Positions 37,324 to 60,932 of a stretch of 64,000 bases of DNA are shown here, one piece after another. How positions within the stretch are numbered: position 1 is the first letter of the stretch; every line of letters starts with the position of its first letter. The notes beneath the pieces are model-generated. The model saw only the letters and a list, made by a program, of their open reading frames with translations, was not told the origin of the DNA and ran no database searches. A program made the translations under genes and the position numbers. Source of the stretch: a virus; IMG/VR virus record IMGVR_UViG_3300042890_002891, positions 1 to 64,000 of that record, one strand, 5' to 3'.

Positions 37324-37629
37324 ATGGATACTGATGCTTTAATTGCCCACGCACGAGTACGTTTTGATCATGTGGCTGCTCGCCGCGTACTAAAAGAAAA
37401 ATACCAAGCCCGTATGTTGTTTGCCTACCGCGGCGGAATGTGGCGTGCTGATCCTGAACTGCTGGTACTGTTGGCCACTGTGCCTCCAGGCGATGCAGTG
37501 GTGTTGGACCTGTATGAAACTCCGGTACAGGTCAATCCTGAACAACTACGAGGCCTGGCCATGCAGTTATGGCAAGAGCAAATGAATGCATGGCTAGTGG
37601 AACTTGATCAACAACGTCAACTACGATGA
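37324..37629 (+). CDS. Conserved phage hypothetical protein
   Basis: A 101-residue protein, not assigned a function. It contains FDHVAARRVLKEKYQARMLF, then AYRGGMWRADPELL, a compact alpha/beta pattern I associate with small conserved proteins of T4-like aquatic phages. The C-terminus is helical with VDLYETPVQVN-like segments (actual text LDLYETPVQVN). It is the first gene after the terminator and overlaps the next gene by ATGA. The start at 37324 lies 5 nt from a TATAAT box, so either the message is leaderless or transcription comes from elsewhere. No clear ribosome site precedes it. Confidence 0.65.
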   Translation: MDTDALIAHARVRFDHVAARRVLKEKYQARMLFAYRGGMWRADPELLVLLATVPPGDAVVLDLYETPVQVNPEQLRGLAMQLWQEQMNAWLVELDQQRQLR

Positions 37630-38438
37630 CCTGCGGTGCGTTAATATTTGCCTTCAACAACGAAGCCACCGACTATGTGAGCATGGCTGCCTGGAGTGCA
37701 GGTCGTATTCGCCACCATCTGGGCATACCAGTTGCTGTTGTGACCAACAGCCAAGATCCTGCACTAAACAAAATGTTTGATCAAGTTATCTACGCAGAGC
37801 CTGAATCAGGTGGCACAAGATTTTTTGAAGACTACAACTCAACCGTGACCTGGCACAATGCCGGTAGAGCAGATGCATACTCTCTCACTCCTTGGGAACA
37901 GACGCTAGTACTGGATGCAGACTATGTGGTGGCCAGTTCGCAGTTGAGTCTGGTGCTGGACAGTAATCGTGATTTCATGTGTCACGATCGTGCTTACGAT
38001 ATTGCAAAATCTCGATTGCTGGATGAACTAAACACATTTGGCGAACATCGCCTGCCCATGAGCTGGGCCACTGTGATGATGTTTCGCAAGAGCAACACTG
38101 CTGCCTACATATTTGACTGTATGCACATGGTGCGACACAACTGGGACCATTACAGAGCCTTGTACAAGATTCAGAAAAGTACCTATCGCAATGACTTTGC
38201 ACTGAGCATTGCTCTAGGAATCATCAGCGGCGGCACCTGGAGAGTCGACAGTATTCCCTGGAGTTTGGCCAGTATCCTGCCCGAGTATGACCTGGAACAA
38301 ATTGCCACTACTGACGAAACATTCAAAATTACGCATCGTGCGTCTGATGGAGGAAATTTGTACTGTGCCCTAAATGGCGTGGACTTTCATGCCATGGGCA
38401 AAAAACATCTAGGAGACATCATTGAAGCCCATAGCTGA
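37626..38438 (+). CDS. Glycosyltransferase-like protein (GT-A type, DxD)
   Basis: A 270-residue protein with an N-terminal GALIFAFNNEATDYVSMAAW strand-helix pattern, VAVVTNS, and a LVLDADYVV block containing D97-A-D99, the divalent-metal motif of GT-A glycosyltransferases. Later motifs are LPMSWATVMMFRKSNTA and YRNDFALSIAL. It probably transfers a sugar from a nucleotide-sugar donor. The acceptor is unknown. It overlaps the genes on both sides and is related in layout to the next protein. Function is inferred from the motif and fold pattern, not from close family recognition. Confidence 0.65.
   Translation: MTCGALIFAFNNEATDYVSMAAWSAGRIRHHLGIPVAVVTNSQDPALNKMFDQVIYAEPESGGTRFFEDYNSTVTWHNAGRADAYSLTPWEQTLVLDADYVVASSQLSLVLDSNRDFMCHDRAYDIAKSRLLDELNTFGEHRLPMSWATVMMFRKSNTAAYIFDCMHMVRHNWDHYRALYKIQKSTYRNDFALSIALGIISGGTWRVDSIPWSLASILPEYDLEQIATTDETFKITHRASDGGNLYCALNGVDFHAMGKKHLGDIIEAHS
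38411..38415 (+). promoter_or_regulatory. Strong ribosome binding site deciding a TTG start
   Basis: AGGAG at 38411-38415 lies 6 nt before TTG at 38422. There is no in-frame ATG near the expected N-terminus, so this site supports TTG initiation. Confidence 0.7.
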
Positions 38439-39204
38439 ACAAGGCTACTTGATTGTGGCCTGTAATTCCACCACAGTTGACTATGTTGACTGTGCCAGAT
38501 CTCTGGTCCGAACATTAAAAATGCACAATCCTGCTGCTGAAGTTTGCCTGGTCACAGATTCGGAATGCACCGATCCTGTGTTTGATTATGTGCGCTATAT
38601 TACCAATGCGAATCCTGCTAATCCATACGAGAATGACTGGCAGGCGTTTTATCAAACTCCGTTTCGTGAAACCATCAAGCTGGAAGCAGACATGTGGATT
38701 GTGAGCAACATTGACCACTGGTGGGATATGTTTAGACACAGAGATCTTGTGATATCAACTGGCTGCAGAACCTGGAGAGATCAAGTCAGCCACAATAGAC
38801 ATTATCGAAAAATATTTGATGACAACAACTTGCCCGATGTATACAACGCTATCACCTACTGGCGTCTTAGTCAAACAGCACAGGAGTTTTTTGTACTGGT
38901 ACGCAACATATTTGCTCATTGGGCAGAGTATCGTAAACTGTTGAAGTTTCCTGAAGATGTTCCATCCACTGATGTGGTGTATGCTATGGCAGCACAAATT
39001 ATAGGTGCTGAATCAGTCACTTTGCCATTTGCAACATATCCCAAAATGGTGCATATGAAACAGCATCATGCAGGAACACGAACCGAAGACTGGACACAGG
39101 AGTTGGTATGGGAATACCGCAACAAGCAACTGCGGATACAAACACACGCACAATGGGGAGCTTTTCATTATCATGTCAAACAAGCAGCCACTCAGTGTAG
39201 ATGA
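38422..39204 (+). CDS. Glycosyltransferase-like protein (GT-A type), TTG start
   Basis: A 260-residue protein of the same general type as the preceding one: N-terminal GYLIVACNSTTVDYVDCARS, VCLVTDSE, and KLEADMWIV with E88-A-D90 in place of D-x-D. Further blocks are YNAITYWRLSQTAQEFFVLV and HAGTRTEDWTQELVW. It starts at TTG with a strong AGGAG site and overlaps the previous gene by 17 nt. Probably a sugar transferase; substitution of the first Asp by Glu is tolerated in some GT-A enzymes. Acceptor unknown. Confidence 0.6.
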   Translation: MKPIAEQGYLIVACNSTTVDYVDCARSLVRTLKMHNPAAEVCLVTDSECTDPVFDYVRYITNANPANPYENDWQAFYQTPFRETIKLEADMWIVSNIDHWWDMFRHRDLVISTGCRTWRDQVSHNRHYRKIFDDNNLPDVYNAITYWRLSQTAQEFFVLVRNIFAHWAEYRKLLKFPEDVPSTDVVYAMAAQIIGAESVTLPFATYPKMVHMKQHHAGTRTEDWTQELVWEYRNKQLRIQTHAQWGAFHYHVKQAATQCR

Positions 39205-39526
39205 TTTCTGGGCAGCACTCAGTGCCATGCCTGCACCTGAGCCGGTGTTCTACAGACTATACTACAACAGCGATGGTTATCCTGTGGCGTATTCAATGGA
39301 GGATATTCCGGGACTGTATGTTGAAATAGATCAGACTACCTATAATGCAAACAACAAGCACATTAGAGTTGTTGACGGAAAGATTGTGACCCAACGGTTT
39401 AATAGAATAACTAAACTTGTGCCTGCTGACTCTGGATCCCCTTGTCATCCTGACAATGTCGCTGTAATCGTCAGTGAGCACAAGCCCCACCAAAAATGGA
39501 CCAAGAAAACTTATGAACCAAATTGA
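39173..39526 (+). CDS. Small protein of unknown function
   Basis: A 117-residue protein from ATG at 39173, preceded by GGGAG about 11 nt upstream. The frame is open further upstream (to 39068), but that part would lie wholly inside the glycosyltransferase gene. It starts with a helix (VDDFWAALSAMPAPEPVFYR), then RLYYNSDGYPVAYSMEDIPG, a beta-rich middle (YVEIDQTTYNANNKHIRVVD) and a polar C-terminus. A helix followed by a short hydrophobic sheet resembles small conserved phage proteins. No function recognised. It overlaps the genes before and after. Confidence 0.55.
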   Translation: MSNKQPLSVDDFWAALSAMPAPEPVFYRLYYNSDGYPVAYSMEDIPGLYVEIDQTTYNANNKHIRVVDGKIVTQRFNRITKLVPADSGSPCHPDNVAVIVSEHKPHQKWTKKTYEPN

Positions 39527-40439
39527 CATTGCAGATCTTGATTGTGTATACTTGACCTATGATGAACCCAAGAAAGAAGAAAACTGGGTCAAGATCAGAA
39601 ACATGATACCATGGGCTCGTCGTGTAGACGGAGTTCGAGGGTCTGACGCAGCACACAAGGCCGCAGCAGACGCCAGTACTACTGAGCGTTTTGTTCTGAT
39701 TGACGGAGATAACATTCCTGATGCTAAATTTTTCAATCAAACATTGATATTTCCCACTGCTGATTATGAATCTGCTGTGTTTCGTTGGAAAGCAAGAAAC
39801 GCCATCAATGGACTCATGTACGGCAATGGTGGACTGAGCTCATGGACGCGGCAATATGTGCAAAACATGAACACACATGAAAACACAGACGGTCGTACAG
39901 AAACACAAGTAGAGTTTTGTTTTGATCCGTTATACTGGCCCATGCACGACTGTTACTCAACCACCTATCCCAATGGATCAGCATTTCATGCCTGGCGTGC
40001 AGGATTCCGTGAAGGTGTAAAGATGTGCCTGAATCGTGGAGCAAGACCCACACTAGCAGAGTTCAAGGATCAAGTGCATCAACGAAATCTAGATCATCTC
40101 ACAATATGGCACAACATAGGTGCAGATGTAGAATACGGTTACTGGGCCATGGCCGGCGCTAGACAAGGCACCTACATGACCATGCTCACAAACTGGGATT
40201 ACCTGCAGGTGCAGAACTTTGATGCACTAGCCGAACTATGGAACACTGTGGAATCAGAACAGCCTGAGATTCTGGCCAATAGAATTGCTGACGAATTGCA
40301 CACACAGTTGGATCTGCCCATGCACATGCTCACTGTAGAAGCCAGTGAATTCTTTAAACGACACTATAGATCAAACTGGCACAATCAAGGCGTAATGGTT
40401 CGTGAGATTGATGTAATACGACAACAAGAAGGATGGTAA
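39513..40439 (+). CDS. Glycosyltransferase-like protein related to the 57157 gene
   Basis: A 308-residue protein from ATG at 39513; an upstream in-frame ATG at 39474 is less likely. Motifs: IPWARRVDGVRGSDAAHKAA, FVLIDGDNIPD (a D-x-D-like metal site), RWKARNAINGLMYGNGGLSS and AFHAWRAGFREGVKM. The same block order occurs in the C-terminal part of the 603-residue protein at 57157: VDRVNGRAAAYHAAAQASTT, HARNPVNGLIYGHQAM and WSTWRTAFREVLKL. The two therefore share a domain of about 200 residues. I infer a GT-A-like transferase; the acceptor is unknown. Confidence 0.6.
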   Translation: MNQIDIADLDCVYLTYDEPKKEENWVKIRNMIPWARRVDGVRGSDAAHKAAADASTTERFVLIDGDNIPDAKFFNQTLIFPTADYESAVFRWKARNAINGLMYGNGGLSSWTRQYVQNMNTHENTDGRTETQVEFCFDPLYWPMHDCYSTTYPNGSAFHAWRAGFREGVKMCLNRGARPTLAEFKDQVHQRNLDHLTIWHNIGADVEYGYWAMAGARQGTYMTMLTNWDYLQVQNFDALAELWNTVESEQPEILANRIADELHTQLDLPMHMLTVEASEFFKRHYRSNWHNQGVMVREIDVIRQQEGW

Positions 40440-40440
40440 T

Positions 40441-40965
40441 ATGCTCAAACCAATTTATTTAAATTATGATTTTTCAAAGATTTTATCTGCTGACTATTCG
40501 CAACATGAGGGTAGTTGCATCAGTCATTTGGCCACAGAGTTAGCAGATGATTATGCGCCATACGGCGGTCTTCCAGGATCATACTGTTATGAAAACACAA
40601 AGATACATCAGTTATGGTGGACCAATGATGACATTGACTTTGATGAGATTGGGCATAAATTAAACATGCAAGTGATTACTGTTAGTAGTATATGCCAGCC
40701 TCCGGGATGTATAGTTCCTTTGCATCGAGACACTTTTTATCAAATCAATCAACGTTGTCCAGAACGAACAGAACTCAAAGTCCGAGCCAACATCTATCTT
40801 GAAGATTGGAAACTAGGGCAGTTTATACAATATGACAATGACATCAGTGCTAAATGGAAAGTAGGTGAAGGATTTATGTGGGATTCTACTCATTTACATC
40901 TTTCAGCCAATGCAGGCATGCAAAACAAATATACCTTACAAGTATCAGGATTTTTAAAACAATAA
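40441..40965 (+). CDS. Putative 2-oxoglutarate/Fe(II) oxygenase or cupin-fold protein
   Basis: A 174-residue protein. CIVPLHRDTFYQI contains H95-x-D97. About 55 residues later GEGFMWDSTHLHLSANAG supplies a candidate third iron ligand (H151 or H153), and KYTLQVSGFL gives a closing strand. This H-x-D...H spacing and the preceding RANIYLEDW strand fit aspartyl-hydroxylase-like or other double-stranded beta-helix oxygenases. It would hydroxylate a peptide, sugar or lipid acceptor. It lies within the glycosyltransferase/radical SAM island, which suggests a tailoring step. Family-level call from motif order only. Confidence 0.55.
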   Translation: MLKPIYLNYDFSKILSADYSQHEGSCISHLATELADDYAPYGGLPGSYCYENTKIHQLWWTNDDIDFDEIGHKLNMQVITVSSICQPPGCIVPLHRDTFYQINQRCPERTELKVRANIYLEDWKLGQFIQYDNDISAKWKVGEGFMWDSTHLHLSANAGMQNKYTLQVSGFLKQ

Positions 40966-40966
40966 G

Positions 40967-41896
40967 ATGTTCACTATAATTTGCAACAATGACAAAATTT
41001 GGAATCAACTCGAGTTGATCGACTATCTTGTCAAGAACCAAGACAAAACAGTTGAGTTAGATATAAATCCTGAAGCAACATGCCTGACAAATCTTGGTGT
41101 ATATCAATTATTAGATCTTTTTAGTTTTAAACAGGTGAACATTTACACTTGGAATCCTTTAGAATACCACCCTAAATATCAAATCAAATTGGTAGATACA
41201 AATTATGTATTAAAAAAAACAATACAAATACCCACTCAACTGCAAACATGGGATCAAACAAAAATTTTCTTTTGTTTTTATGGTCGCCCTACTGCTGGTA
41301 GATTGGGGTTAGCAGGACATTTGTTCAAGAAGTACAACCAACAAAGTTTAATTCATTTTTCAACAGACACCGACGACTATTATAAATTTGAATTTGATAA
41401 GCTATTGTCGTATGATACAGCTAGTGTACCCGACGCCAGTGCTCTGCTACAACATCTTCCAATTCTACAATCAAGCAACAATCAATATTCACCGCTTGAA
41501 TATGATTTCCGTGACAAACTTACAGAGCTTTATCAAAGTATTTTAATAGATGTAGTAGGAGAAACTTTTGTTCAAGGAACAACATTTTTTCCTTCAGAAA
41601 AAACTACCCGGCCCATGCTACTGAAAAAACCTTTTGTAACATTTGCATCACAAGATCATATGGCGTATCTTCGGCAGATGGGATTCCAAACATTCCACGG
41701 ATTTTGGGACGAAGATTATGATGGATTTGAAGGGAGAGACCGGTTGATTCGGCTATATCAAGTTATTGGTGATGTAGCAAACCGGCCAATGAATGAATTA
41801 GTTGACATGTATAAAGAAATGCAACCAATCCTGGACCATAATTACAATTTACTAATGTCTCAAAGTTACAACAAAACTATAACAAAAATAATATGA
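40967..41896 (+). CDS. Glycosyltransferase-like protein, EKT/DESYD family (copy 1)
   Basis: A 309-residue protein, one of five paralogues in the window. The C-terminal block reads VVGETFVQGTTFFPSEKTTR, then KKPFVTFASQDHMAYLRQMG and FQTFHGFWDEDYDG. The family consensus is ET...EKT.(K/R)P...PFV......LR..GF.TF...DE(S/D)YD. An earlier block FFCFYGRPTAGRLGLAGHLF matches the NGR-type block of the others. The EK element and the glycine-rich region before it resemble the nucleotide-sugar half of GT-B enzymes such as fucosyltransferases. This copy is the most diverged: AT-rich and with E-D-Y-D instead of E-S-Y-D. It overlaps the next radical SAM gene by ATGA. Confidence 0.6.
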   Translation: MFTIICNNDKIWNQLELIDYLVKNQDKTVELDINPEATCLTNLGVYQLLDLFSFKQVNIYTWNPLEYHPKYQIKLVDTNYVLKKTIQIPTQLQTWDQTKIFFCFYGRPTAGRLGLAGHLFKKYNQQSLIHFSTDTDDYYKFEFDKLLSYDTASVPDASALLQHLPILQSSNNQYSPLEYDFRDKLTELYQSILIDVVGETFVQGTTFFPSEKTTRPMLLKKPFVTFASQDHMAYLRQMGFQTFHGFWDEDYDGFEGRDRLIRLYQVIGDVANRPMNELVDMYKEMQPILDHNYNLLMSQSYNKTITKII

Positions 41897-43266
41897 GCAA
41901 AAGCGATTTTTTATCTTCAGCCGAAAAAATGCATGCCGAGCTTGGTCCTGCCTTGTGCTTGGCCAAATGGAAACAGGTCAGTTTTCATCTACCCACAGGG
42001 CTCAATAACTCATGCTATCATCCGCCCTTGCACCGAATACCCATCGAAGACATTGGACGTAATCCTTCCGCATTGCATAACACTCCGCACAAGAAAGAAC
42101 AGCGCAAACTCATGCTGGCAGGTGTCAAACCTGCGGAGTGTAGCTATTGCTGGAACATGGAAGCACAAAACAAGCTGAGTGATAGACACTACAGATCAGG
42201 CGAGCCCTGGGCCGCAGTAGATTTTGACAAAATAAAAAGCTCAACAGGAGATGAAGATGTTATTCCCAGTTATGTGGAAGTTAATTTTAACAATGTTTGC
42301 AACCTTGCATGCAGCTATTGCAGCCCGCAGTTCTCAAGCACTTGGCAGCAAGAAACTGATCGGCACGGTGCATATCCTACTCTGGTGCCTCATAACGCTC
42401 CTGAGCATTTTTCTGGTGACCGTAAGCCCATTCCAGCCCGTGATCACAATCCTTATGTAGAAGCATTTTGGGAGTGGTGGCCCACCTTGTATCCTGAGCT
42501 GGAACACTTTAGAATGACCGGCGGCGAGCCCTTGTTGGATCGCAATACCTATAGAGTATTCGACTATGTGCTGGAGAACCCTAGTCCCAAATTACACCTG
42601 AATGTTACGTCAAACTTTAGTGTAGATGAAAAGTCATGGCAAAAATATCTAGCCTATGTGAAACAACTATGTGATGGGCGCATAGAACACTTCATGCAGT
42701 ATGTGAGTCTAGATGCCTGGGGAGCTCAAGCAGAGTACATACGTCACGGTCTGGACTTTGATCTGTTGTGGGATCGAGTTGACCAGTTTCTTACTCAAGT
42801 GCCTAGCTACAACAGCCTGACATTTATTGTCACAATGAACAATCTCAGTGTGTCAAGCCTGGACCGATTGTTGGCAGGCATACTGGAACTACGTAAAAAA
42901 CACAGTACAACATATCAGCGTGTGTGGTTTGATACTCCTGTGCTGCGTGAACCTGCATGGCAGAGCCTGCAAACACTGGGAGAATCTTATGCTGCACGGC
43001 TTGACACAGTCAAAGACTACATGGCTGCACACTTGGAAACATCTGCAAATCCATTCAAAGGTTTCAAAGACTACGAAGTGGCCAGGCTAGACAGAGACAT
43101 TGCCTGGATGCGATCAGGGCAAGCTGCGGATCAAAGTTGTAGTCAAGCAGACTTTTATCGTTTTTTCAGCGAAGCAGATCGCCGTCACGGAACAAATTTT
43201 TTACAAGTGTTTCCTGAAATGCGAGCCTGGTGGGCCGAATGTGAGTACCATGCTAGACAAAACTAA
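41893..43266 (+). CDS. Twitch-domain radical SAM protein
   Basis: A 457-residue protein. The N-terminal module has C22, C41 and C83-x2-C86; the radical SAM motif is C136-x3-C140-x2-C143 (CNLACSYC), followed by SPQFSSTW and MTGGEPLLD. Middle blocks are LNVTSNFSVD and YVSLDAWGAQAEYIRHGLDF. It is most similar in this window to the protein at 44392, which has the same N-terminal HPP and KK...M.AG..P..C.YCW features, so the pair is a duplication with a glycosyltransferase-like gene between. Target unknown. It overlaps its neighbours by 4 and 17 nt. Confidence 0.88.
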   Translation: MSKSDFLSSAEKMHAELGPALCLAKWKQVSFHLPTGLNNSCYHPPLHRIPIEDIGRNPSALHNTPHKKEQRKLMLAGVKPAECSYCWNMEAQNKLSDRHYRSGEPWAAVDFDKIKSSTGDEDVIPSYVEVNFNNVCNLACSYCSPQFSSTWQQETDRHGAYPTLVPHNAPEHFSGDRKPIPARDHNPYVEAFWEWWPTLYPELEHFRMTGGEPLLDRNTYRVFDYVLENPSPKLHLNVTSNFSVDEKSWQKYLAYVKQLCDGRIEHFMQYVSLDAWGAQAEYIRHGLDFDLLWDRVDQFLTQVPSYNSLTFIVTMNNLSVSSLDRLLAGILELRKKHSTTYQRVWFDTPVLREPAWQSLQTLGESYAARLDTVKDYMAAHLETSANPFKGFKDYEVARLDRDIAWMRSGQAADQSCSQADFYRFFSEADRRHGTNFLQVFPEMRAWWAECEYHARQN

Positions 43267-44395
43267 TCTAGTAGTAGATACATTCAGTGTTGTATACGAT
43301 TTACTAAAACCCTTTGCTAGTCAGGAGTTCTGGGAGTTTGCTGATCATGTGCCAGTCACGGGTGCAACCTATGTTATAGGACGCAAACAACTGGTAGAAA
43401 ATAGACCCAGAATCAGAGCCATGTGCGAGTCTAACCAATACTGCATGGTGTTTGACGGTGCTGCTGAAGGATCCTGGACACTGATAGAACAAATACGCAT
43501 GTTGGGCATAGAAGATCTTGTGTTGAGCAAGCAACTGCTGATACTCAGTGGCGGTGTCATGCCCGCTAAGTATCCTGCACTAACACATGATCATTTCTTT
43601 AATGTGATACTGGGCTATGACGAAAATCTACAGCAGATGGAACGCATGCCCGAAATTTACAATACCACATCCAAGCCTTATGATTTTTTATTCCTAAATG
43701 GGCGAGCAAGGCCACACAGAAAATACCTGTGGGAACGATTGAATCAACTGGGCCTGCTGGATCGGGCAATATGGTCCATGCTCGATGGAAGGCCCACGCT
43801 CAAAGGCACAGAGCTAACGCTCATGTCCGGCAGTGTCGATTTAATGACCACAGTGACACCTATACGTCAACTGGATTCCCAATACGAAGTTGCACGATAC
43901 CAAAACAATTCAGTGGAGATAACCGAACCCAAACGGCAATTTATCAAGCAAGACATGTTTCACAACACCTGGGGTGAAATTTATCTACAAACCGAACCCT
44001 ATGCTGATACCTACTTTAGTCTGGTCACAGAAACCATATGCGAACACGGCAACAGTTTTCGAACTGAAAAGATTGCCAAACCGCTGGCACAAGGACATCC
44101 GTGGATCGTGGCAAGCAATGCTGGATTTTATCGTGATCTTCGCAACTTGGGATTTCAAACATTCGGGCATGTGATAGACGAGTCGTTTGATTTGATTGAC
44201 AACACCCAAGATAGACTCAATCGAATTGTCGAAATTGTACAGGATCTTTGCAGTCAAGACCTTGCAAAATTTCTCAATGAGTGTTACACTGTATGTAAAT
44301 ACAATCAACAACATCTCGGTGAGTATCGAGAGCAACTACGCCGCGACTTTCCCCAGCGGTTGTTTGATTTTTTACAAGAGCATACCCTTCAGTGA
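43250..44395 (+). CDS. Glycosyltransferase-like protein, EKT/DESYD family (copy 2)
   Basis: A 381-residue protein using ATG at 43250; the frame is open upstream inside the radical SAM gene. Family blocks: YDFLFLNGRARPHRKYLWER (about residues 142-161), FSLVTETICEHGNSFRTEKI, GHPWIVASNAGFYRDLRNLG, and FQTFGHVIDESFDLIDNTQD. GT-B-like nucleotide-sugar-binding half inferred as for the other copies. The C-terminus is helical. Alternates with radical SAM genes on both sides, overlapping the following one by GTGA. Acceptor unknown. Confidence 0.6.
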   Translation: MLDKTNLVVDTFSVVYDLLKPFASQEFWEFADHVPVTGATYVIGRKQLVENRPRIRAMCESNQYCMVFDGAAEGSWTLIEQIRMLGIEDLVLSKQLLILSGGVMPAKYPALTHDHFFNVILGYDENLQQMERMPEIYNTTSKPYDFLFLNGRARPHRKYLWERLNQLGLLDRAIWSMLDGRPTLKGTELTLMSGSVDLMTTVTPIRQLDSQYEVARYQNNSVEITEPKRQFIKQDMFHNTWGEIYLQTEPYADTYFSLVTETICEHGNSFRTEKIAKPLAQGHPWIVASNAGFYRDLRNLGFQTFGHVIDESFDLIDNTQDRLNRIVEIVQDLCSQDLAKFLNECYTVCKYNQQHLGEYREQLRRDFPQRLFDFLQEHTLQ

Positions 44396-50295: not shown

Positions 50296-50314
50296 ATCAA
50301 GGAAACTAATTTAA

Positions 50315-53277: not shown

Positions 53278-53375
53278 CCTGGCTAAAGAACTTATGGGCA
53301 AGAATTACCCTGGAATATCGTTACCGAAAGAAATTAAAAGAATTGAGAAAGCGTGATCCTTTTATCTATAAATGA
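53274..53375 (+). CDS. 33-residue basic peptide
   Basis: An ATG at 53274 overlaps the previous stop (ATGA), and TGA at 53373-53375 overlaps the ATG of the carbamoyltransferase gene (ATGA). The peptide begins TWLKNLWARITLEYRYRKKL and ends KELRKRDPFIYK. It is an amphipathic basic helix with a charged end. The double ATGA coupling and the lack of any other gene in this gap argue that it is translated. Peptides ending in RDPFIY-like sequences occur in related phages as far as I recall. Possible roles: a small regulator, a membrane-surface peptide, or a substrate of the radical SAM enzymes; none is shown. Confidence 0.65.
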   Translation: MTWLKNLWARITLEYRYRKKLKELRKRDPFIYK

Positions 53376-54853
53376 ATATACTAGGAGTCTCGGCAGGGTT
53401 TCATGACGCTGCTGCCACAGTGCTGAGTTCACAAGGTGACGTGTTGTTTGCTGGACACAGCGAACGCTACAGCAAACGCAAGAATGATGCCGACTTCTGT
53501 CCAGGGCTCTTGGATGATATCTTGCCGTATGCACCTGCGCATGTGGCCTATTATGAACGTCCCTGGGCCAAGCAACTGCGTCAACTTTATGCTGGACAAG
53601 GCATTGACTGGAACAAACTCACAGTAGGGCAAATACTCAAGTCTCAGCTGGGCGACAGTATTGAACCAGAGCGAGTATCTAGTCACAGTCATCACCTGAG
53701 CCATGCGGCTTCAGGATTTCAAACCAGCCCGTTTGATCGTGCCACAGTCGTGGTAATAGATGCAGTGGGCGAATGGGAAACAGTTACTATATGGGGCGCA
53801 GAATATGATTCAACGGGTCGTGCAATTTATAAAAAACTGTGGCAACAAAATTACCCACATTCCATCGGACTCTTTTATAGTGCAGTCACTGGCCGCGTTG
53901 GCCTACACCCACTAGACGAAGAATACATACTAATGGGCATGGCTGCTTATGGCAATCCGGGCATCAGCGAACTCATGAGAATGAATCTGGTGCAGGATGA
54001 ATGGGAAATTAGATTCAAAGAAAATCTACACACAGGACTAGATCCCAAGTATCTGGAACATTTTAGTGACGCAGATCTGGCAGCAGGGGCACAGGATCTA
54101 GCGGAAGACTTGATTCTAAACGTCATGATGCGAGCTCGAAACTTCAAGTTCAGCAGCAATCTAGTTTATCAAGGCGGGGTTGCACTCAATTGCAGTGCCA
54201 ACAGACGAATAGGAAATTATTTTGAAAACATTTGGATTATGCCTTGCCCTGGTGATGCTGGCTCTAGCCTGGGAGCCGCTGCGTTGGCTTATGGTCAGCG
54301 GGTTAATTGGACTAGTGCTTTTCTTGGCCATGATATCCCCGGTGCTTATCCTGTTAATCTTCTACTTGATAATCTTGTTACCACTGGCATTGTTGGCGTG
54401 GCCTCAGGTCGTGCAGAGTTTGGACCTAGAGCCCTTGGACATAGAAGCCTGCTTGCAGACCCCAGAGGACCAGACATAAAAGATCGTGTGAATGAAATCA
54501 AACGACGTCAACAGTTCCGACCATTTGCTCCTGTGATACTGGAAGAACTGGCTGATCAGTACTTTATCATGCCTCGTGGTTGGGAACACAGTCCTTACAT
54601 GCAGTCAGTGAGTCATTGTCGCAGTCCTGAACTGTATCCTGCTATTGTGCATCATGATGGCACCAGCAGAGTACAAACTGTATCAAAAGATTCGCCATCG
54701 GGCATTAGAGAACTCTTGGAAAAATGGTATGTCATGACCGGCTGTCCCATGCTGCTGAACACCAGCCTGAACATACGCGGTGAACCCATGGTCAACGATC
54801 GCGCGGACGCAGATCGATTCGAAGCCTTGTACGGTGTTACTGTGTGTAGCTAA
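53372..54853 (+). CDS. Carbamoyltransferase, NodU/TobZ family
   Basis: A 493-residue protein. The N-terminal domain starts NILGVSAGFHDAAATVL with H-D of the ASKHA fold. HHLSHAAS at 107-114 and VVVIDAVGEWETVTIW follow, then EYILMGMAAYGNP and YQGGVALNCSANRRIG, and the C-terminal domain has GRAEFGPRALGHRSLLADPR and RQQFRPFAPVILEE. These are the signatures of O-carbamoyltransferases that transfer carbamoyl from carbamoyl phosphate via an adenylate to sugar hydroxyls. Somewhat shorter than bacterial NodU (about 560 residues). Last plus-strand gene of the island, its 3' end overlapping a convergent gene by 17 nt. Confidence 0.88.
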   Translation: MNILGVSAGFHDAAATVLSSQGDVLFAGHSERYSKRKNDADFCPGLLDDILPYAPAHVAYYERPWAKQLRQLYAGQGIDWNKLTVGQILKSQLGDSIEPERVSSHSHHLSHAASGFQTSPFDRATVVVIDAVGEWETVTIWGAEYDSTGRAIYKKLWQQNYPHSIGLFYSAVTGRVGLHPLDEEYILMGMAAYGNPGISELMRMNLVQDEWEIRFKENLHTGLDPKYLEHFSDADLAAGAQDLAEDLILNVMMRARNFKFSSNLVYQGGVALNCSANRRIGNYFENIWIMPCPGDAGSSLGAAALAYGQRVNWTSAFLGHDIPGAYPVNLLLDNLVTTGIVGVASGRAEFGPRALGHRSLLADPRGPDIKDRVNEIKRRQQFRPFAPVILEELADQYFIMPRGWEHSPYMQSVSHCRSPELYPAIVHHDGTSRVQTVSKDSPSGIRELLEKWYVMTGCPMLLNTSLNIRGEPMVNDRADADRFEALYGVTVCS

Positions 54854-56009
54854 GACGGTCAATCAAGCGAGCTAGACTGGGCCTGGAACGCTGTATAAAC
54901 AATTGTTGGTTGTGTATCAAATCGGGCATGCATTTCAAATACCATTGATGCAGGTCCTGCTGTTTGATCTGCTGCAAAGTTTGTTTTACAGCAAACCAAC
55001 GTTGAGTATTATCTACTATGCTATCGTAACTGTTGTCAATCACTGAATCAAATGTACGATATCCTGCAGAACGCAAGGCCGCCAAACTGCCCACGGGTCC
55101 TGCTATCACAAATGGTTGTCCAAACTTCATGCACTTGTAGGTTTTTTCAGTGATAAAAGCACCACCGCTTTGATCCACATCAAACAAGGTTTCGATTGAG
55201 ATGTGGCAATAGCTGTTAAGATAAAGATCAGTATTGATCATTCTGTGATCGTTGTGTGCATCTGAATCAGGACCGTCACAGTAGTATGGACCATTTGCCA
55301 GGAACAACTGTAGTTTTTTGACCCAGTCCGAGTCAGACTTTATGCTAATAGGGTTGTTGTCCTCCAGATCATCTATAGTGCAATCAGTATTGTAACTCCA
55401 CAGGCTGTTGTTTAGAATACCATCGGCATGCAGATCACTCATGATGCTGCCGCGCCACCATTTGTGTATGCGATTCAGTGCAGTAAAGTCATACTGTCTA
55501 GGAAGATCAGTTACAGGAGTGTAACCTTGACGACGATTAACATAACTCAAAAAGTATTCGTGATCTGGAAAGTAATGGCATCTAGCCACAGAATTGGCCA
55601 CAGTATTGGCACTCACAAACAAATAACAATCCACAGGCAGCTGATGTTGCACACACAAACTATCCAGACGTTCTCGTATGCGATCAGGATTGTCCCCTTC
55701 GTGATAGTAGAACAATACTTTTATTTCTTTCAGCTGCAATTTAGCAATAGTGTTGAGTTTCATTAGTCCAAAATAATCACAATCAAAATCGTGCCAGCCC
55801 AGCGCAACCGGATACCAACTACCTGCGGGTGCTTGATCCACTGTGCTGCTGGTCCAAACGGCCCCTGCATGTTTGAGATATACTAGCAGTCTGAATGCAA
55901 TTGTTCTGGGCCAGGTGTTGTCAAAGTCGTCTGGCCCTAGACCTAGATCAGCAAGATTAGGATATCCTAATTCAGGATCACTCATGGTGTCGTAGCAAAA
56001 ATTTATCAT
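54837..56009 (-). CDS. Glycosyltransferase-like protein, EKT/DESYD family (copy 4)
   Basis: A 390-residue protein. Family blocks: YDFTALNRIHKWWRGSIMSD, ISIETLFDVDQSGGAFITEK, TYKCMKFGQPFVIAGPVGSL, and YRTFDSVIDNSYDSIVDNTQ. The N-terminal FCYDTMSDPELGYPNLADLG region is not shared with all copies. It lies on the minus strand, downstream of copy 5 with ATGA coupling, and overlaps the carbamoyltransferase 3' end convergently by 17 nt. Possible donor: a nucleotide sugar; acceptor unknown. Confidence 0.62.
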   Translation of the reverse strand: MINFCYDTMSDPELGYPNLADLGLGPDDFDNTWPRTIAFRLLVYLKHAGAVWTSSTVDQAPAGSWYPVALGWHDFDCDYFGLMKLNTIAKLQLKEIKVLFYYHEGDNPDRIRERLDSLCVQHQLPVDCYLFVSANTVANSVARCHYFPDHEYFLSYVNRRQGYTPVTDLPRQYDFTALNRIHKWWRGSIMSDLHADGILNNSLWSYNTDCTIDDLEDNNPISIKSDSDWVKKLQLFLANGPYYCDGPDSDAHNDHRMINTDLYLNSYCHISIETLFDVDQSGGAFITEKTYKCMKFGQPFVIAGPVGSLAALRSAGYRTFDSVIDNSYDSIVDNTQRWFAVKQTLQQIKQQDLHQWYLKCMPDLIHNQQLFIQRSRPSLARLIDRLSYTQ

Positions 56010-57154
56010 GTATCTATCTGTGCCAGCATGTTGTTTAGTTCAGTCCACAATACTGCTTCAAAACCACCCTTGTAGAAATGATTCCAGTTGTGTTCTATTA
56101 CTTCTTGAGCTGCATCAAACAACTGTTGCTTGGCTTTGGTAGACAGCACGTCTAGACTCTTTAGCAGTTCAGCAATGCGAGTAATACGCAAATCGTCCTC
56201 GGCCAAATCATAACTCTCGTCCCAGATGTTGCCAAAGGTTCGGAAACCGTAACTGCGCAGGTATTCGAGACTACCACGTGTGCCCACAACAACAAATGGC
56301 ATACCTAGAGCAATGGGCTTGAATGTCTTTTCAGTCAAATGATGTCTACGTCCTGTAGCCACAGTTTCAGTCACAAGATATAGTAGGCTTTCGGCTGCCT
56401 CATCAAACAAGCTGAGCCAACAGCTATGCATGGGATGGTCGGTTTCATTCACAAAGTTGATGGGCAAGGTCTGTGCCGCAAATACAGATTCAATGTCAGG
56501 ATATTTTGCTGCCAAGGGCTTGATGGCATGGTGTATGCTGATGTTTTCTGCAGGGCATGTGTCGGGACAACTGATATGATTGTGCGTCATATCATGCTTG
56601 AATATGTGATACAGTATTTCTAATCTATGTTGCCGTTCGCCAGCCACAATACGATTAGGGGCAATAAATGTTCGGGTTATAGTGCGTTCTTGTATTGGCT
56701 GTATCAAAAAGGTCTTGTCATATCCGCGATACCAGTCCAGTGCTGCCCAGCCATGAAAGAAATAGTAAGCAGGTTTCCACTTGAAATGAGCACACACATA
56801 TTCAACATTTTCGCTATCATGTTCACTGGTCAACAGGTATCCAGGAATTTCACCATTTGCACGTGGTATCTTGCTCCAGGCGCCAGTGACTCTATTAAGA
56901 TATATGTTGGAGTGTATATCTGCATTGAGAGTTATAACTTTCTCAAAAGTCTCCATGTGTATGCTCAAATGAATAGGCTCTTGGTCATAAATGAATATAT
57001 AATTGTGTTCGTGAGCAGTATCACTACCGTAACTAACTACACTGTCTGGATCACTGCGCCCAAACGGATCGCAATGAAACACTCTGTAACCTGGACGATT
57101 CCGTTGAAACCAAGGCCAAAAAGTGTTGTTGTAAATTTCATCTATTCTGATCAT
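56006..57154 (-). CDS. Glycosyltransferase-like protein, EKT/DESYD family (copy 5)
   Basis: A 382-residue protein from ATG at 57154; the open frame extends further but into the divergent gene. Best example of the family: TRTFIAPNRIVAGERQHRLE, YLVTETVATGRRHHLTEKTF, KPIALGMPFVVVGTRGSLEY and LRSYGFRTFGNIWDESYDLA. The start codon is 2 nt from that of the plus-strand gene at 57157. An AATATAAAATA string on the minus strand (57176-57166) could act as a promoter -10. Fits a GT-B-like transferase acting with the neighbouring sugar genes. Confidence 0.65.
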   Translation of the reverse strand: MIRIDEIYNNTFWPWFQRNRPGYRVFHCDPFGRSDPDSVVSYGSDTAHEHNYIFIYDQEPIHLSIHMETFEKVITLNADIHSNIYLNRVTGAWSKIPRANGEIPGYLLTSEHDSENVEYVCAHFKWKPAYYFFHGWAALDWYRGYDKTFLIQPIQERTITRTFIAPNRIVAGERQHRLEILYHIFKHDMTHNHISCPDTCPAENISIHHAIKPLAAKYPDIESVFAAQTLPINFVNETDHPMHSCWLSLFDEAAESLLYLVTETVATGRRHHLTEKTFKPIALGMPFVVVGTRGSLEYLRSYGFRTFGNIWDESYDLAEDDLRITRIAELLKSLDVLSTKAKQQLFDAAQEVIEHNWNHFYKGGFEAVLWTELNNMLAQIDT

Positions 57155-57156
57155 TA

Positions 57157-58968
57157 ATGTTCGACGTATTTTATATTGGAAATAAACCCAACCTGTTTGT
57201 GCATGAGTGTGAGGTTGAATCAATTGAACAAGCACAGCAACAGAGTCGCACTGGATATTTCTGGATGGTATCATACTTAGTGGATTACACAGGGTTCAAT
57301 TTCCTTTGGAAACCAGCACCTTGGCAAGGTCATCAGTGTCATGCTTGGCCCAGCCAATGGCAAAAAGATTCAGGTACATATCTAGCGCCCAAGTCAGGCT
57401 ATTTTGAAATCAACTACAGAAAAGACCAAGTGCTGACGCGGTTACAGGACCGGAGCAACTGGGTCATTCCTGACAATTTTGATGCAGATAGTTTTGACTT
57501 CTCCTGGCATCCTGACACAACAGAACCTGATTATGTATATCAATTTGGCACACAGCATCAACGCACAGGCGGTCCAAAATATTGTGTGGCAGGTGCCATA
57601 GATCTGAAGTTTTGCGATCAAGTCAGAGGAAGTGTCAAGTCTGGCACAACACCCATAATTGAAATAAATCACCTGGACGGCAATGCTGGACAAGTTCCAG
57701 GAGTTGTATCCACTGTTCGTTACTTTGACAACTACAAAGATACACTTGCTAGAATTGCCAACACTTGTGAACACGAGTATGTGTGGATTGTCAGTAGTAT
57801 CTGCGACTACAGTAATTTTGACTTCTCCTGGCATCCTGAGCTATGGCAAAACACCATGCTGCATGTGTTTGCTAGCGACGAGCAAAAGTTTGGCGACACA
57901 TTCTATATGCATGTGCCCAGCTTCCAAAAGCGTATAGATCAATTTGCATTGCTTGATTGGTATGATCTAAACTTTGTTAGTACTGGCGTTCCACGTAGAC
58001 CCATGCCCATAGTACAGCACGATCAAGACAGTCATGCAGATGTGATTCGGACTCGAAACTTTGCCGGTCCACTAGCAGTATTCACACAGTCTGCCTACAT
58101 GAGCGCAAACTTGGTCACTGTGTCATTGTGGAGAGAACAAACCAAGACTATAGTTCCGTTGAATCCCGGTGCATCTAGTGTGATTGTGCCTCGAACAGCC
58201 GTGCCTTATATCAAGACACAGCTATACGATTACCCTTATGTGGACAAGACGCATCGTGTGCTACTGGATCCGCGCCAGGACATTGTGTTCATCTCCAACG
58301 GTGAAACCAACGCTGAAGATAATTGGACAATTCTAGAAAGCAGAATCATAGGACTAGAGACAAATAAACTACACAGAGTCGATCGTGTGAATGGTCGTGC
58401 AGCAGCATATCATGCAGCAGCCCAGGCCAGTACTACGCCGTGGTTCTTTGCTGTGTTTGGTAAGTTAGCAATTGATCTTGACTTTGACTGGGCATGGCAA
58501 CCTGATCGCATGCAACAAGCCAAACACTATATCTTTCATGCTCGGAATCCGGTCAATGGCCTAATATACGGACATCAGGCCATGATCGCATACAACAAAC
58601 AATTGGTACTAGACAATCCAGGAGTGGGACTAGACTTCACGCTGGACTCACCACATGAAGTAGTGCCCATCTTGAGTGGAGTGGCATACTACGATACTAG
58701 TGCCTGGAGTACATGGCGCACAGCATTCAGAGAAGTTCTAAAACTTCAAGCCAGCTTGCCAGATGTGGAAAATGAATACCGTCTAAACAAATGGCTTGAT
58801 ATCAACAGTGACGAAACAGATCCGCAGTGGAGCCGACTTGGTGCAGAAGATGCTGTAGAATATTACAATCAAGTCAACGGTGACTTTGCAGCTCTTAAGA
58901 AAAGCTACGAGTGGGAGTGGCTTGCAAGTTATGCGTTTGTCAAACGCAGCCTATTACCGAGTCAATGA
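57157..58968 (+). CDS. Glycosyltransferase-like protein with four WxP repeats
   Basis: A 603-residue protein. Four copies of an F-(N/D)-(F/W)-x-W-x-P motif occur: FNFLWKP (47-53), FDFSWHP (113-119), FDFSWHP (221-227) and FDWAWQP (about 443-449). Each repeat is followed by H-x-F or a similar aromatic block. The last 220 residues match the protein at 39513 (VDRVNGRAAAYHAAAQASTT, HARNPVNGLIYGHQAM). Thus repeat units precede a GT-A-like domain. A transferase with a repetitive acceptor-binding part is my inference. The start is 2 nt from the divergent gene, without a visible Shine-Dalgarno site. The 3' end overlaps the aminotransferase gene by 29 nt. Confidence 0.6.
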   Translation: MFDVFYIGNKPNLFVHECEVESIEQAQQQSRTGYFWMVSYLVDYTGFNFLWKPAPWQGHQCHAWPSQWQKDSGTYLAPKSGYFEINYRKDQVLTRLQDRSNWVIPDNFDADSFDFSWHPDTTEPDYVYQFGTQHQRTGGPKYCVAGAIDLKFCDQVRGSVKSGTTPIIEINHLDGNAGQVPGVVSTVRYFDNYKDTLARIANTCEHEYVWIVSSICDYSNFDFSWHPELWQNTMLHVFASDEQKFGDTFYMHVPSFQKRIDQFALLDWYDLNFVSTGVPRRPMPIVQHDQDSHADVIRTRNFAGPLAVFTQSAYMSANLVTVSLWREQTKTIVPLNPGASSVIVPRTAVPYIKTQLYDYPYVDKTHRVLLDPRQDIVFISNGETNAEDNWTILESRIIGLETNKLHRVDRVNGRAAAYHAAAQASTTPWFFAVFGKLAIDLDFDWAWQPDRMQQAKHYIFHARNPVNGLIYGHQAMIAYNKQLVLDNPGVGLDFTLDSPHEVVPILSGVAYYDTSAWSTWRTAFREVLKLQASLPDVENEYRLNKWLDINSDETDPQWSRLGAEDAVEYYNQVNGDFAALKKSYEWEWLASYAFVKRSLLPSQ

Positions 58969-60010
58969 TGTATTCTGCTTCTGAGTCAGTGAGCTCAGGA
59001 TAGATTGGCAGACTCAAACAGCGTCGGCTTAGAGAATAGCAGGCACCCAATATATCAGGAGCAGCACAATCTTGATATGGATTCAAGGCCTGGATAGGAT
59101 CTAGATAATGTACTTTGGTTTCAATGCCAAGATCAGTTAGCGCCTGATGTAGCTGATCTCTATGATCAACATCAATTACAAATTTGTGATAGCAATGCTC
59201 TCGATAGTTTGTGGCGTCAATCAGTGAACGAATTCCGGCTTGACTCAGTTGCTCCATCCAGTGTCGCGCAATCTCTCCCCTGCGGGTTTGCCATGCATCT
59301 ATGTAACGAGTCTTGACCATCATCTGCGCACAGTCAACTTCACTCATTCGCGAGTTTGTGCCAGTCTGCGCACTGCCACTAATGCGATATGATCGATTTC
59401 TAATCCAGTTTCTAGCAAAGAGATCCAACAGGATGCTATCAGTAATTACTGCTCCGCCGTTGCCGTAGTTGTTGAAGTTCTTGGTAGGATCAAAACTGAT
59501 AGCAGCCGCAAACCCCCTGCGTTCACAGTTGCGACTCAACCAATGTTGTGCAGCATCTTCAACCCAGGTTCTAGAGTATCCTTCAGACGCATAACTGGAA
59601 TCCAGGGCGTGGCCATACAAGCCAACAGGGCAAATCACAGTGGCGTCTTTGTGAACAGTTGCCAAATCCATTAGTCCATATGCATTGGTATCTGCCACGG
59701 TCACAGTCCAACCTGCTCGTCGCCACGCATTGGCAGTGGCCACATAGGTCATTGCAGGAACTGATACTATCGCATCATCTAGATCATGGAGATAACTAGC
59801 AATGATTTCCAGGGCCTGTGTGCCTGAATGACATGTGATTGCATACAGGCTGTGATTCTTTTTGGCCAGCCAGGATTCAAATTGTTCGGTATATTCACCG
59901 CTCATGAGAGATCCTGAACGCAACACAGTGTCTGTTGCATCCAGAATTTCTGTGCGTAGATTGTTATACTGTTTTGGTATTCCAGTAAACGGAATTTTTA
60001 AGCCATTCAT
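58940..60010 (-). CDS. DegT/DnrJ/EryC1/StrS-family sugar aminotransferase
   Basis: A 356-residue PLP enzyme from ATG at 60010; an in-frame TTG at 60022 is less likely. Family motifs: LRSGSLMSGEYTEQFE, CHSGTQALEI, VSVPAMTYVATANA, CPVGLYGHALD, EDAAQHW (151-157) and SFDPTKN with the PLP lysine at K177, then NNYGNGGAVIT. The EDAAQ motif is characteristic. These enzymes transaminate 3- or 4-keto nucleotide sugars to amino sugars. Coupled to the epimerase gene just upstream (46-nt overlap), which would supply the keto sugar or a related intermediate. Strong evidence for phage-encoded amino-sugar synthesis. Confidence 0.9.
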   Translation of the reverse strand: MNGLKIPFTGIPKQYNNLRTEILDATDTVLRSGSLMSGEYTEQFESWLAKKNHSLYAITCHSGTQALEIIASYLHDLDDAIVSVPAMTYVATANAWRRAGWTVTVADTNAYGLMDLATVHKDATVICPVGLYGHALDSSYASEGYSRTWVEDAAQHWLSRNCERRGFAAAISFDPTKNFNNYGNGGAVITDSILLDLFARNWIRNRSYRISGSAQTGTNSRMSEVDCAQMMVKTRYIDAWQTRRGEIARHWMEQLSQAGIRSLIDATNYREHCYHKFVIDVDHRDQLHQALTDLGIETKVHYLDPIQALNPYQDCAAPDILGACYSLSRRCLSLPIYPELTDSEAEYIIDSVIGCV

Positions 60011-60932
60011 AATACTTTTCAAAGCCCTCTTCTACATCTACTTGGGGATCAAATCCAAAGTCTCTACGTGCAGCATCAATGTTCAGCGCACCGCGACTGG
60101 GAAAGTCTGTGTCCTTGTCTCGGACCACAATAGAGCCCGAGCCTGCAAGTTTGACTGCCAAGTTAGCAGCGTCCCATAATGTTCTACTGTGACTCTTGGT
60201 GATGTTATAGGTTTTGTTATCAGTGTTGTGGCTCAATGCAGCAGCCACAATACCATCAGCAGCATCTTCCACATAGGTAAAGTCCAGGGTTTCGTTTTTG
60301 CCATTCACATTCAATACACCGCCGCGCATGGCAGCCAGCATGAATTTTGCAATGACTCTATCTTCCACATCCAAGGGCCCGTACACAGCACTGGGACGAA
60401 TGATAGTGTGTGCAATATTGTCTCTGCGTGTGTAGTCTCGTACCAGCCATTCACCTGCCAGTTTCATAATGCCATACTGCCCTTGCGGAGCACATACTGC
60501 ATCTTCTGTTACATCATCCACAAAGTCTCCGTACACCATGGAACTGCTGATATACACAAATTTGCGTGTATCGTAGTTCCGGCTGGCTTCCAACAAGTTT
60601 AGCAAGCCTTCGCTCATCACACGACTGCCCTTTGCAGGGTTGGCATTGACCACTTTCTGTCGCGGAAAGCTGGCCATGTGAATCACAATCTCCGGCTGTT
60701 CAATCTTGAACACCTTGTTCACAGCATAGCTGTCACAAATGTCATACTTGTAGTATCTACTCAAGTTGATTTTCTTGATACGTTCTTCAACCAGATAATC
60801 TATTTCAGGCTGAGGAATAATTCCGTAGTTGGTTTGTGTGTCCATGATAGACACCACATGCCCTTGATCTTGCAGTCGTTGAACCACATTGTGCCCAATA
60901 AGACCAAGTCCGCCTGTTACTAGTATATTCAT
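59964..60932 (-). CDS. NAD-dependent epimerase/dehydratase (extended SDR)
   Basis: A 322-residue protein from ATG at 60932 (ATGA overlap with the upstream gene). TGGLGLIG (6-13) is the NAD-binding glycine motif; IHMASFPRQKVVNANP, YISSSMVYGDF with S129-S131, and Y153-x3-K157 (YGIMK) complete the catalytic set. RPSAVYGPLDVEDRVIAKF and LDFTYVEDAADGIVAAAL are typical of nucleotide-sugar epimerases and dehydratases. It probably acts on an NDP-sugar before the DegT aminotransferase encoded downstream. Substrate not predictable. Confidence 0.9.
   Translation of the reverse strand: MNILVTGGLGLIGHNVVQRLQDQGHVVSIMDTQTNYGIIPQPEIDYLVEERIKKINLSRYYKYDICDSYAVNKVFKIEQPEIVIHMASFPRQKVVNANPAKGSRVMSEGLLNLLEASRNYDTRKFVYISSSMVYGDFVDDVTEDAVCAPQGQYGIMKLAGEWLVRDYTRRDNIAHTIIRPSAVYGPLDVEDRVIAKFMLAAMRGGVLNVNGKNETLDFTYVEDAADGIVAAALSHNTDNKTYNITKSHSRTLWDAANLAVKLAGSGSIVVRDKDTDFPSRGALNIDAARRDFGFDPQVDVEEGFEKYYEWLKNSVYWNTKTV

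What the first reader, a model, noticed from the sequence alone, without database searches (positions are those of the whole stretch)
37324..60932. Candidate undescribed glycan-building and decoration island
Within 23 kb lie about nine glycosyltransferase-like genes, an NAD-dependent epimerase, a DegT aminotransferase, a NodU-type carbamoyltransferase, two SGNH hydrolase-like genes, an oxygenase-like gene and five radical SAM genes, mostly coupled by 4-20 nt overlaps. Together these are the parts for making an amino sugar, linking sugars, carbamoylating or acylating them, and adding radical-based changes. The product might coat the virion fibres, alter the host surface, or modify DNA precursors. 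The target is unknown.
Basis: inference. Interest (0 to 1): 0.9.

Follow-up and report, generated by a model that had tools for sequence, protein, structure and literature searches.

The report
Jumbo-phage sugar-coat and radical-enzyme island
A giant water-borne bacterial virus carries a fixed block of about 16 genes, shared with well over a hundred uncultured relatives, that probably builds unusual sugars and attaches them to a threonine-rich tail-fibre protein encoded right next to it; five enzymes using radical chemistry are always part of the block and their job is unknown.

Summary
37.3-61.1 kb carries nine glycosyltransferase (GT)-like genes, five twitch radical SAM genes, a NodU/TobZ-family carbamoyltransferase, DegT and SDR sugar genes, and optional SGNH and oxygenase genes. 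It is no chance cluster: in 59 related viral loci spanning the first half, all five radical SAM genes, the carbamoyltransferase and unknown ORF 52240 are present in 59/59, in the same order in 54/59. The block starts just behind the tail-fibre genes; a reverse search with fibre ORF 36277 alone finds the GTs downstream in 48-49 of ~50 contigs. 36277 is the most Ser/Thr-rich protein (>200 aa) of the record (29%; relatives 27-34%). No island protein has a membrane segment. Most relatives add an amidinotransferase that this window lacks. Best reading: a soluble pathway builds and tailors a carbamoylated amino-sugar glycan on a virion fibre. Host-surface modification remains possible; DNA modification is disfavoured (no ThyA- or TET-family gene). 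A 'host recognition cluster' of fibres, GTs and radical SAM cassettes is published for pelagimyophages, so the kind is known. New are the fixed architecture, the lineage, and five co-inherited radical SAM subfamilies that also sit together on Bdellovibrionota chromosomes near sugar genes. Target and chemistry are inferred, not shown.

The parts
34871..36265 (+). tail-fibre-like virion protein, upstream neighbour of the island
   Evidence: PHROG 'virion structural protein' and 'tail fiber protein' hits; upstream in relatives
36277..37254 (+). Thr/Ser-rich fibre-like protein (28.9% S+T, 21.5% T), candidate glycan acceptor
   Evidence: highest S+T of all >200 aa proteins of the record; homologues median 30.5%; GT genes downstream in 48-49 of ~50 contigs found with it alone; acceptor role inferred
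37324..37629 (+). small conserved protein between fibre and GT genes
   Evidence: 45 of 51 loci of the reverse search; no family hit
37626..38438 (+). GT-A/GT8-like glycosyltransferase
   Evidence: LDADY motif; same family as 38422; very weak glycogenin/NleB PDB hits of the joint profile
38422..39204 (+). GT-A/GT8-like glycosyltransferase, paralogue of 37626
   Evidence: phrog_1903 unknown function
39068..39526 (+). small conserved protein (likely start about 39173)
   Evidence: 55 of 59 loci
39474..40439 (+). DxD-motif GT-like protein, related to 57157
   Evidence: hhalign 99%; 59/59 loci
40441..40965 (+). beta-hydroxylase/2OG-oxygenase-like, optional
   Evidence: PF05118 E 0.02; only 4/59 loci
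40967..41896 (+). GT-B-like 'TEK' glycosyltransferase, optional
   Evidence: 17/59 loci
41893..43266 (+). radical SAM 1, twitch type
   Evidence: NF033640 E 7e-92; 59/59 loci; fused to a P-loop sulfotransferase-like domain in six loci
43250..44395 (+). GT-B-like 'TEK' glycosyltransferase (ORF opens at 43100)
   Evidence: 57/59 loci
44392..45729 (+). radical SAM 2
   Evidence: same subgroup as 41893; CX3CX2C; 59/59 loci
45726..47441 (+). radical SAM 3 with SPASM-like domain before the radical SAM core and an extra 150-aa N-terminus
   Evidence: NF033640 E 5e-118; PF13186 E 2e-12; extra domain unrelated to the GTs
47438..48208 (+). SGNH-like hydrolase/acyltransferase, optional
   Evidence: motif; DUF6071 E 1e-4; 6/59 loci
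48189..49403 (+). radical SAM 4
   Evidence: NF033640 E 1e-99; 59/59 loci
49381..50295 (+). GT-B-like 'TEK' glycosyltransferase, optional
   Evidence: 21/59 loci
50315..50971 (+). SGNH-like hydrolase/acyltransferase, optional
   Evidence: motif GDSFTYG...DAAH; hhalign 95% to 47438; 2/59 loci
50958..52247 (+). radical SAM 5
   Evidence: PF04055 above cut-off; 59/59 loci; orthologues on Bdellovibrionota chromosomes
52240..53277 (+). core protein of unknown function
   Evidence: 59/59 loci, at least 375 viral contigs; no Pfam, PHROG, PDB or fold match
53372..54853 (+). O-carbamoyltransferase, NovN/GdmN/TobZ family
   Evidence: PF16861/PF02543; PDB profile E 2e-64
54837..56009 (-). GT-B-like 'TEK' glycosyltransferase
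56006..57154 (-). GT-B-like 'TEKT' glycosyltransferase (ORF opens at 57274)
   Evidence: predicted fold pLDDT 79, best PDB matches almost all GT-B enzymes but E >= 1.5e-3
57157..58968 (+). multi-repeat GT-like protein related to 39474; repeat number varies (relatives up to 1456 aa)
58940..60022 (-). DegT/DnrJ sugar aminotransferase
   Evidence: PF01041 E 1e-49
59964..61061 (-). NAD-dependent sugar epimerase/dehydratase (SDR)
   Evidence: NCBIfam TIGR01181 E 2e-35 below cut-off; phrog_540 nucleotide-sugar epimerase

Best explanation
The island is a soluble, cytoplasmic glycosylation module that decorates the phage's own tail fibre. Proposed steps: (1) SDR and DegT convert a nucleotide sugar into an amino sugar (family-level inference). 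(2) GT8-like enzymes 37626/38422 (perhaps with 39474/57157) put the first sugar on Thr/Ser of fibre protein 36277 (inferred). (3) Three to five GT-B-like enzymes extend the glycan (inferred). (4) The carbamoyltransferase adds O-carbamoyl; in most relatives an amidinotransferase adds a guanidino group; optional SGNH, methyltransferase and sulfotransferase-like genes swap in and out as final decorations (enzyme families shown, substrate inferred). (5) Five radical SAM enzymes make further changes (oxidation, epimerisation or C-C/C-S bonds) on the sugars or on the acceptor protein (activity inferred from family; substrate unknown). A constant core with interchangeable decorations suggests selection for changing the look of the fibre, for receptor binding or protection.
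For: Fixed gene set and order across loci (all five radical SAM genes, 52240 and carbamoyltransferase in 59/59, order in 54/59). Near-obligate linkage to fibre genes: searching with 36277 alone, 49/50 contigs carry 37626, 48/49 38422, 48/49 39474, 30/32 radical SAM 44392 downstream. 36277 is the most S/T-rich protein of the record, a property kept in freshwater and marine relatives. No membrane segment in any island protein (highest 19-residue hydropathy 1.46 among GT, radical SAM and sugar genes), so no flippase, polymerase or membrane GT. Distant Vibrio phage K566 pairs 4-5 such radical SAM genes with GT8 genes (PF01501 above cut-off), GT4-like genes and an S/T-rich protein ranked 2nd of 129. 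Carbamoyltransferase and amidinotransferase belong to families acting on sugars, aminocyclitols and other natural products. Bacterial arrays of the same radical SAM subfamilies lie near sugar-nucleotidyltransferase-like, APH-type kinase, GT2 and (L351) GDSL genes.
Against: No acceptor, glycan or enzyme activity is shown. S/T-richness is common in fibres without glycans, and Thr columns of 36277 are no better conserved than Gly or Trp columns. The GT assignment of the nine ORFs is weak at sequence level (no Pfam). LPS-modifying GTs can also be soluble. Nine GTs and five radical SAM enzymes is a lot for one fibre glycan. Twitch/SPASM enzymes elsewhere often act on peptides rather than sugars (established knowledge).
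Confidence: 0.5

Rival explanations
1. The module remodels the host surface (LPS/O-chain) during infection, for example to block superinfection, as proposed for the GT-rich host recognition cluster of pelagimyophages.
For: PMC7029224 describes tail fibres, GTs and radical SAM cassettes in one variable cluster and argues for O-chain change. HTVC008M and S-SCSM2R carry carbamoyltransferase or amidinotransferase genes in sugar-gene clusters, the latter with KdsA/KdsB. FkbM-type methyltransferase, sulfotransferase-like and SGNH genes are usual polysaccharide decorators.
Against: No membrane protein, flippase, polymerase or lipid-carrier GT in the island; fixed position behind the fibre gene.
Confidence: 0.25
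2. The radical SAM enzymes act on a peptide: they change residues of the fibre or of a small island protein (39068, 37324), and the GTs then glycosylate it, giving a RiPP-like modified virion protein.
For: SPASM/twitch radical SAM enzymes are often peptide modifiers (established knowledge); small conserved proteins lie inside the block; K566 repeats the radical SAM/GT/S-T-rich-protein trio.
Against: No RiPP-recognition domain hit or obvious leader-like peptide seen (not searched exhaustively); the bacterial arrays lie near sugar genes.
Confidence: 0.12
3. The island makes a diffusible or conjugated small molecule (aminocyclitol- or polyketide-like) rather than a glycan on a macromolecule.
For: Carbamoyltransferase plus amidinotransferase plus radical SAM recur in a chromosomal polyketide-synthase region of a Bacteriovoracales genome (L211); solved relatives include NovN, GdmN, TobZ, SxtG and inosamine-phosphate amidinotransferase.
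Against: No PKS, NRPS or carrier protein recognised in the phage island; tight linkage to fibre genes; window copy lacks the amidinotransferase.
Confidence: 0.06
4. The island modifies phage DNA or its precursors (carbamoyl- or glycosyl-cytosine).
For: A phage carbamoyltransferase of this family makes 5-carbamoyloxymethylcytosine (PMC8670742); T4 beta-glucosyltransferase is among the weak fold matches of 56006.
Against: No ThyA-family (PF00303) or TET/JBP (PF12851) gene in the record; DNA-acting carbamoyltransferases co-occur with thymidylate synthase and the others with GTs (PMC8670742); QueE and GTP cyclohydrolase genes lie far from the island.
Confidence: 0.03

Closest known systems
Host recognition cluster (HRC) of pelagimyophages (PMC7029224)
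   Same: tail fibres, several GTs including GT8 and radical SAM cassettes in one region
   Different: there hypervariable between genomes, and radical SAM absent from its freshwater members; here a fixed gene order with five radical SAM subfamilies, 52240 and carbamoyltransferase, in another jumbo lineage
Radical SAM-rich T4-like environmental genome TARA_ERS488813_N000010 (PMC5332604)
   Same: 12 radical SAM genes in one T4-like phage
   Different: discussed there as Fe-S metabolism; no glycan link made in the passage read
Virion glycosylation in mycobacteriophages (Freeman 2023, cited in PMC12619734)
   Same: phage GTs modify virion proteins
   Different: no radical SAM, carbamoyl or amidino chemistry mentioned in what was read
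Phage 5hmC carbamoyltransferase (PMC8670742)
   Same: same enzyme superfamily (PF02543/PF16861)
   Different: acts on DNA together with a ThyA homologue, absent here
Vibrio phage K566 radical SAM/GT cluster (OZ196521)
   Same: twitch-type radical SAM genes alternating with GT8/GT4-like genes beside an S/T-rich protein
   Different: radical SAM genes only distantly related, other GT families; no carbamoyltransferase, DegT or 52240 found there

Membership tests
Twitch-domain radical SAM (NF033640) | profile match above curated cut-off | tested here: met
   41893, 45726, 48189 scanned: 308-395 bits against 170; 44392 and 50958 not scanned with this model
Twitch-domain radical SAM (NF033640) | CX3CX2C cluster motif | tested here: met
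   all five genes; 596/596 relatives
NodU/TobZ O-carbamoyltransferase | Carbam_trans N and C domains | tested here: met
NodU/TobZ O-carbamoyltransferase | carbamoyl transfer to a hydroxyl | not testable with these tools
   needs enzyme assay
DNA cytosine carbamoylation system | ThyA-family hydroxymethylase in same genome | tested here: not met
   no PF00303 match in the record; record may be incomplete
Virion glycosylation system | GT genes linked to virion protein gene | tested here: met
Virion glycosylation system | glycan found on virion protein | not testable with these tools
   needs MS
Serotype-conversion / surface polysaccharide cluster | membrane GT, flippase or polymerase | tested here: not met
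   no hydrophobic segment in island proteins
Pelagimyophage host recognition cluster | tail fibres plus GTs plus radical SAM cassettes in one region | tested here: met
   against PMC7029224
Pelagimyophage host recognition cluster | homologous genes to that cluster | tested here: inconclusive
   marine contigs L186-L188 (binned as SAR11 and others) hold the same block, but the published genomes were not compared directly
GT-B glycosyltransferase (56006 family) | GT-B fold | tested here: inconclusive
   best fold matches nearly all GT-B, none at E <= 0.001, TM <= 0.35

The most novel reading that the evidence does not exclude
A conserved set of five radical SAM enzymes works in sequence with glycosyltransferases, a carbamoyltransferase and, in most relatives, an amidinotransferase to build a chemically new, guanidino/carbamoyl amino-sugar (or sugar-peptide) modification on a phage fibre: a kind of virion post-translational chemistry with no known precedent. 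The same five-enzyme set, exchanged with Bdellovibrionota, would do related chemistry on a cell-surface glycan there.
Probability: 0.25. Interest if true: 0.85.

Novelty: new variant of a known kind. Interest (0 to 1): 0.63.

Why it matters
Radical SAM genes in phages have been noted in passing but not tied to a defined module. Here five subfamilies are co-inherited in a fixed block beside a likely acceptor protein, in at least a hundred uncultured aquatic phage contigs, with an isolated distant parallel (Vibrio phage K566). That turns 'why do phages carry so many radical SAM enzymes' into a testable question, and points to new enzymes (52240, the GT-B-like family, the radical SAM set) for glycan chemistry.

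Tried and rejected
Idea that the extra N-terminus of radical SAM 45726 is a GT domain: profile comparison gives 1% probability, rejected. DNA modification through hydroxymethyl-cytosine or TET: no PF00303 or PF12851. PDB sequence profiles for 52240 and 39474: nothing; for the GT-B-like family only meaningless hits. Fold search for 52240: nothing. Pfam on the extra N-terminal domain fused to radical SAM 41893: nothing, so 'sulfotransferase-like' rests on the P-loop motif only. Terminase search with phrog_2: no hit. Thr conservation in 36277 as evidence of glycosites: not decisive. Papers naming this lineage: none found in the library searched.
Full report
What is there. The window is the first 64 kb of a 261,673-base virus record. 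Replication genes resemble T4-type phages at about 25-40% identity (gp43, gp41, gp44, gp46/47, UvsW, ligase, NrdAB), and a baseplate and fibre module (8.4-37.3 kb) lies directly before the island. The island runs from 37324 to 61061. The GT-like ORFs are almost invisible to Pfam and PHROGs; three profile families cover all nine. The largest (40967, 43100, 49381, 54837, 56006) shares E303-T304, T314-E-K316 and D352/D356 (numbering of 56006), and the predicted structure of 56006 resembles GT-B enzymes, with low scores.

More than chance. Two independent scans of IMG/VR, with radical SAM 45726 and with GT 56006, each returned more than 100 encoding stretches; 52240 is encoded in at least 375. Many are contigs of 100-350 kb; some loci of the two scans are the same contig, and three (L025 and L106, L026) are near-identical to the window. 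Of 59 loci spanning 38422 to the carbamoyltransferase, all hold the five radical SAM genes, 39474, 52240 and the carbamoyltransferase; 54 keep the order; SGNH (6 and 2), oxygenase (4) and extra GTs (17 and 21) are optional. Relatives carry other optional genes in the same slots: FkbM-type and other methyltransferases, many SGNH variants, sulfotransferase-like P-loop proteins, further radical SAM genes.

A missing part. Between carbamoyltransferase and 54837, 36 of 54 and 62 of 68 spanning loci hold a gene of the arginine:glycine amidinotransferase family (PDB profile E 3e-24, with SxtG and inosamine-phosphate amidinotransferase also matched). The window lacks it. So the usual product may carry a guanidino as well as a carbamoyl group. 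This is a statement on enzyme families only; nothing suggests that the phage makes any of those natural products.

Link to the fibre. The block starts behind fibre genes in freshwater relatives and in marine contigs that had been binned into unrelated MAGs (L186, L187, L188, L191). The reverse test, a scan with 36277 alone, gave 51 loci; GTs 37626, 38422 and 39474 follow in 49/50, 48/49 and 48/49 with enough sequence, radical SAM 44392 in 30/32. 36277 is the most Ser/Thr-rich protein above 200 aa in the record and stays at 27-34% in relatives against a median of 11% over all proteins of the related loci. None of the island proteins has a hydrophobic segment. In Vibrio phage K566, which shares little else, twitch-type radical SAM genes alternate with GT8 and GT4-like genes next to an S/T-rich protein.

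The five radical SAM enzymes. A maximum-likelihood tree (67 rows) gives each of the five genes its own well-supported clade holding freshwater phages, marine phages and proteins from one tandem array of eight on a chromosome contig of Bacteriovoracaceae bacterium UBA6144 (contig with obgE- and rpmA-like genes). Some joins rest on long branches. Relatives of 50958 occur in 14 of 369 genomes of that phylum; arrays in G001 and in the 2.66-Mb contig of G177 lie near NTP-transferase and GT2 genes (both genomes) and APH-type kinase and GDSL genes (G177), and one gene lies between glmU- and glmS-like genes (L208; own reading of the sequence). In L211 radical SAM, carbamoyltransferase and amidinotransferase genes share a region with a polyketide synthase and an ABC transporter. 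So the set looks like a unit that is not peculiar to this phage lineage, and its cellular surroundings point to sugars or surface molecules. Direction of transfer is not settled.

How it most likely works: see best explanation. Shown: gene families, synteny, fibre linkage, lack of membrane segments, shared ancestry of the radical SAM set. Inferred: that the ORFs are active GTs, the order of steps, the acceptor, the substrate of the radical SAM enzymes.

Against known systems. Pelagimyophages have a host recognition cluster of tail fibres, GTs and radical SAM cassettes, interpreted as host O-chain modification (PMC7029224), and a T4-like ocean genome carries 12 radical SAM genes (PMC5332604). 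The present island therefore belongs to a known kind. It differs in its fixed content and order, in the 52240, GT-B-like and 39474 families that have no match in 50,697 annotated phage records, and in the carbamoyl/amidino/radical SAM combination. DNA carbamoylation (PMC8670742) was tested and is disfavoured.

Limits. The record may be incomplete, hosts are unknown, fold scores are weak, and the S/T argument is compositional. Ordinary biochemistry (steps listed) would settle the target.

Noticed in passing
window 1190-3158 and 6249-7406: Three more radical SAM genes flank the gp46/gp47-like recombination genes (3145-6239); the record holds 13-14 radical SAM genes in all.
   Followed up: partly
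record 102680-103537 and 109626-110324 (L010, L011): QueE-like radical SAM and GTP cyclohydrolase genes suggest 7-deazaguanine DNA modification, separate from the island.
   Followed up: no
record 110391-111939 (L011): A second, short DegT-like gene next to a GalE-like SDR gene.
   Followed up: no
record 123321, 202221-203982, 218966-220258: Four more members of the GT-B-like 'TEK' family outside the island.
   Followed up: no
window 57150-57160: The GT genes 56006 (minus) and 57157 (plus) start back to back with almost no spacer, also in relatives, so any promoter must lie inside the genes.
   Followed up: no
window 20008-34017: A single 4669-aa ORF between the baseplate wedge gene and the fibre genes.
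   Followed up: no
L168, L124, L113 and others (57157 homologues): The repeat-containing GT-like protein varies from about 540 to 1456 aa by gain and loss of internal repeats.
   Followed up: partly
L048, L080, L057, L036/L037, L097: Radical SAM 41893 fused to an N-terminal P-loop, sulfotransferase-like domain.
   Followed up: partly
L185-L189, L191: Small contigs in MAGs of Pacearchaeota, Betaproteobacteria, Pelagibacter, Rickettsiales, Flavobacterium and Verrucomicrobia hold this island or parts of it: probable mis-binned phage.
   Followed up: partly
L211 (G082, Bacteriovoracales): Chromosomal region with polyketide synthase, carbamoyltransferase, amidinotransferase, several radical SAM genes and an ABC transporter ATPase.
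   Followed up: partly
window 63517-63984 and record 65844-66929: VWA-like and MoxR-type ATPase-like genes close together behind the island (own reading; relatives).
   Followed up: no
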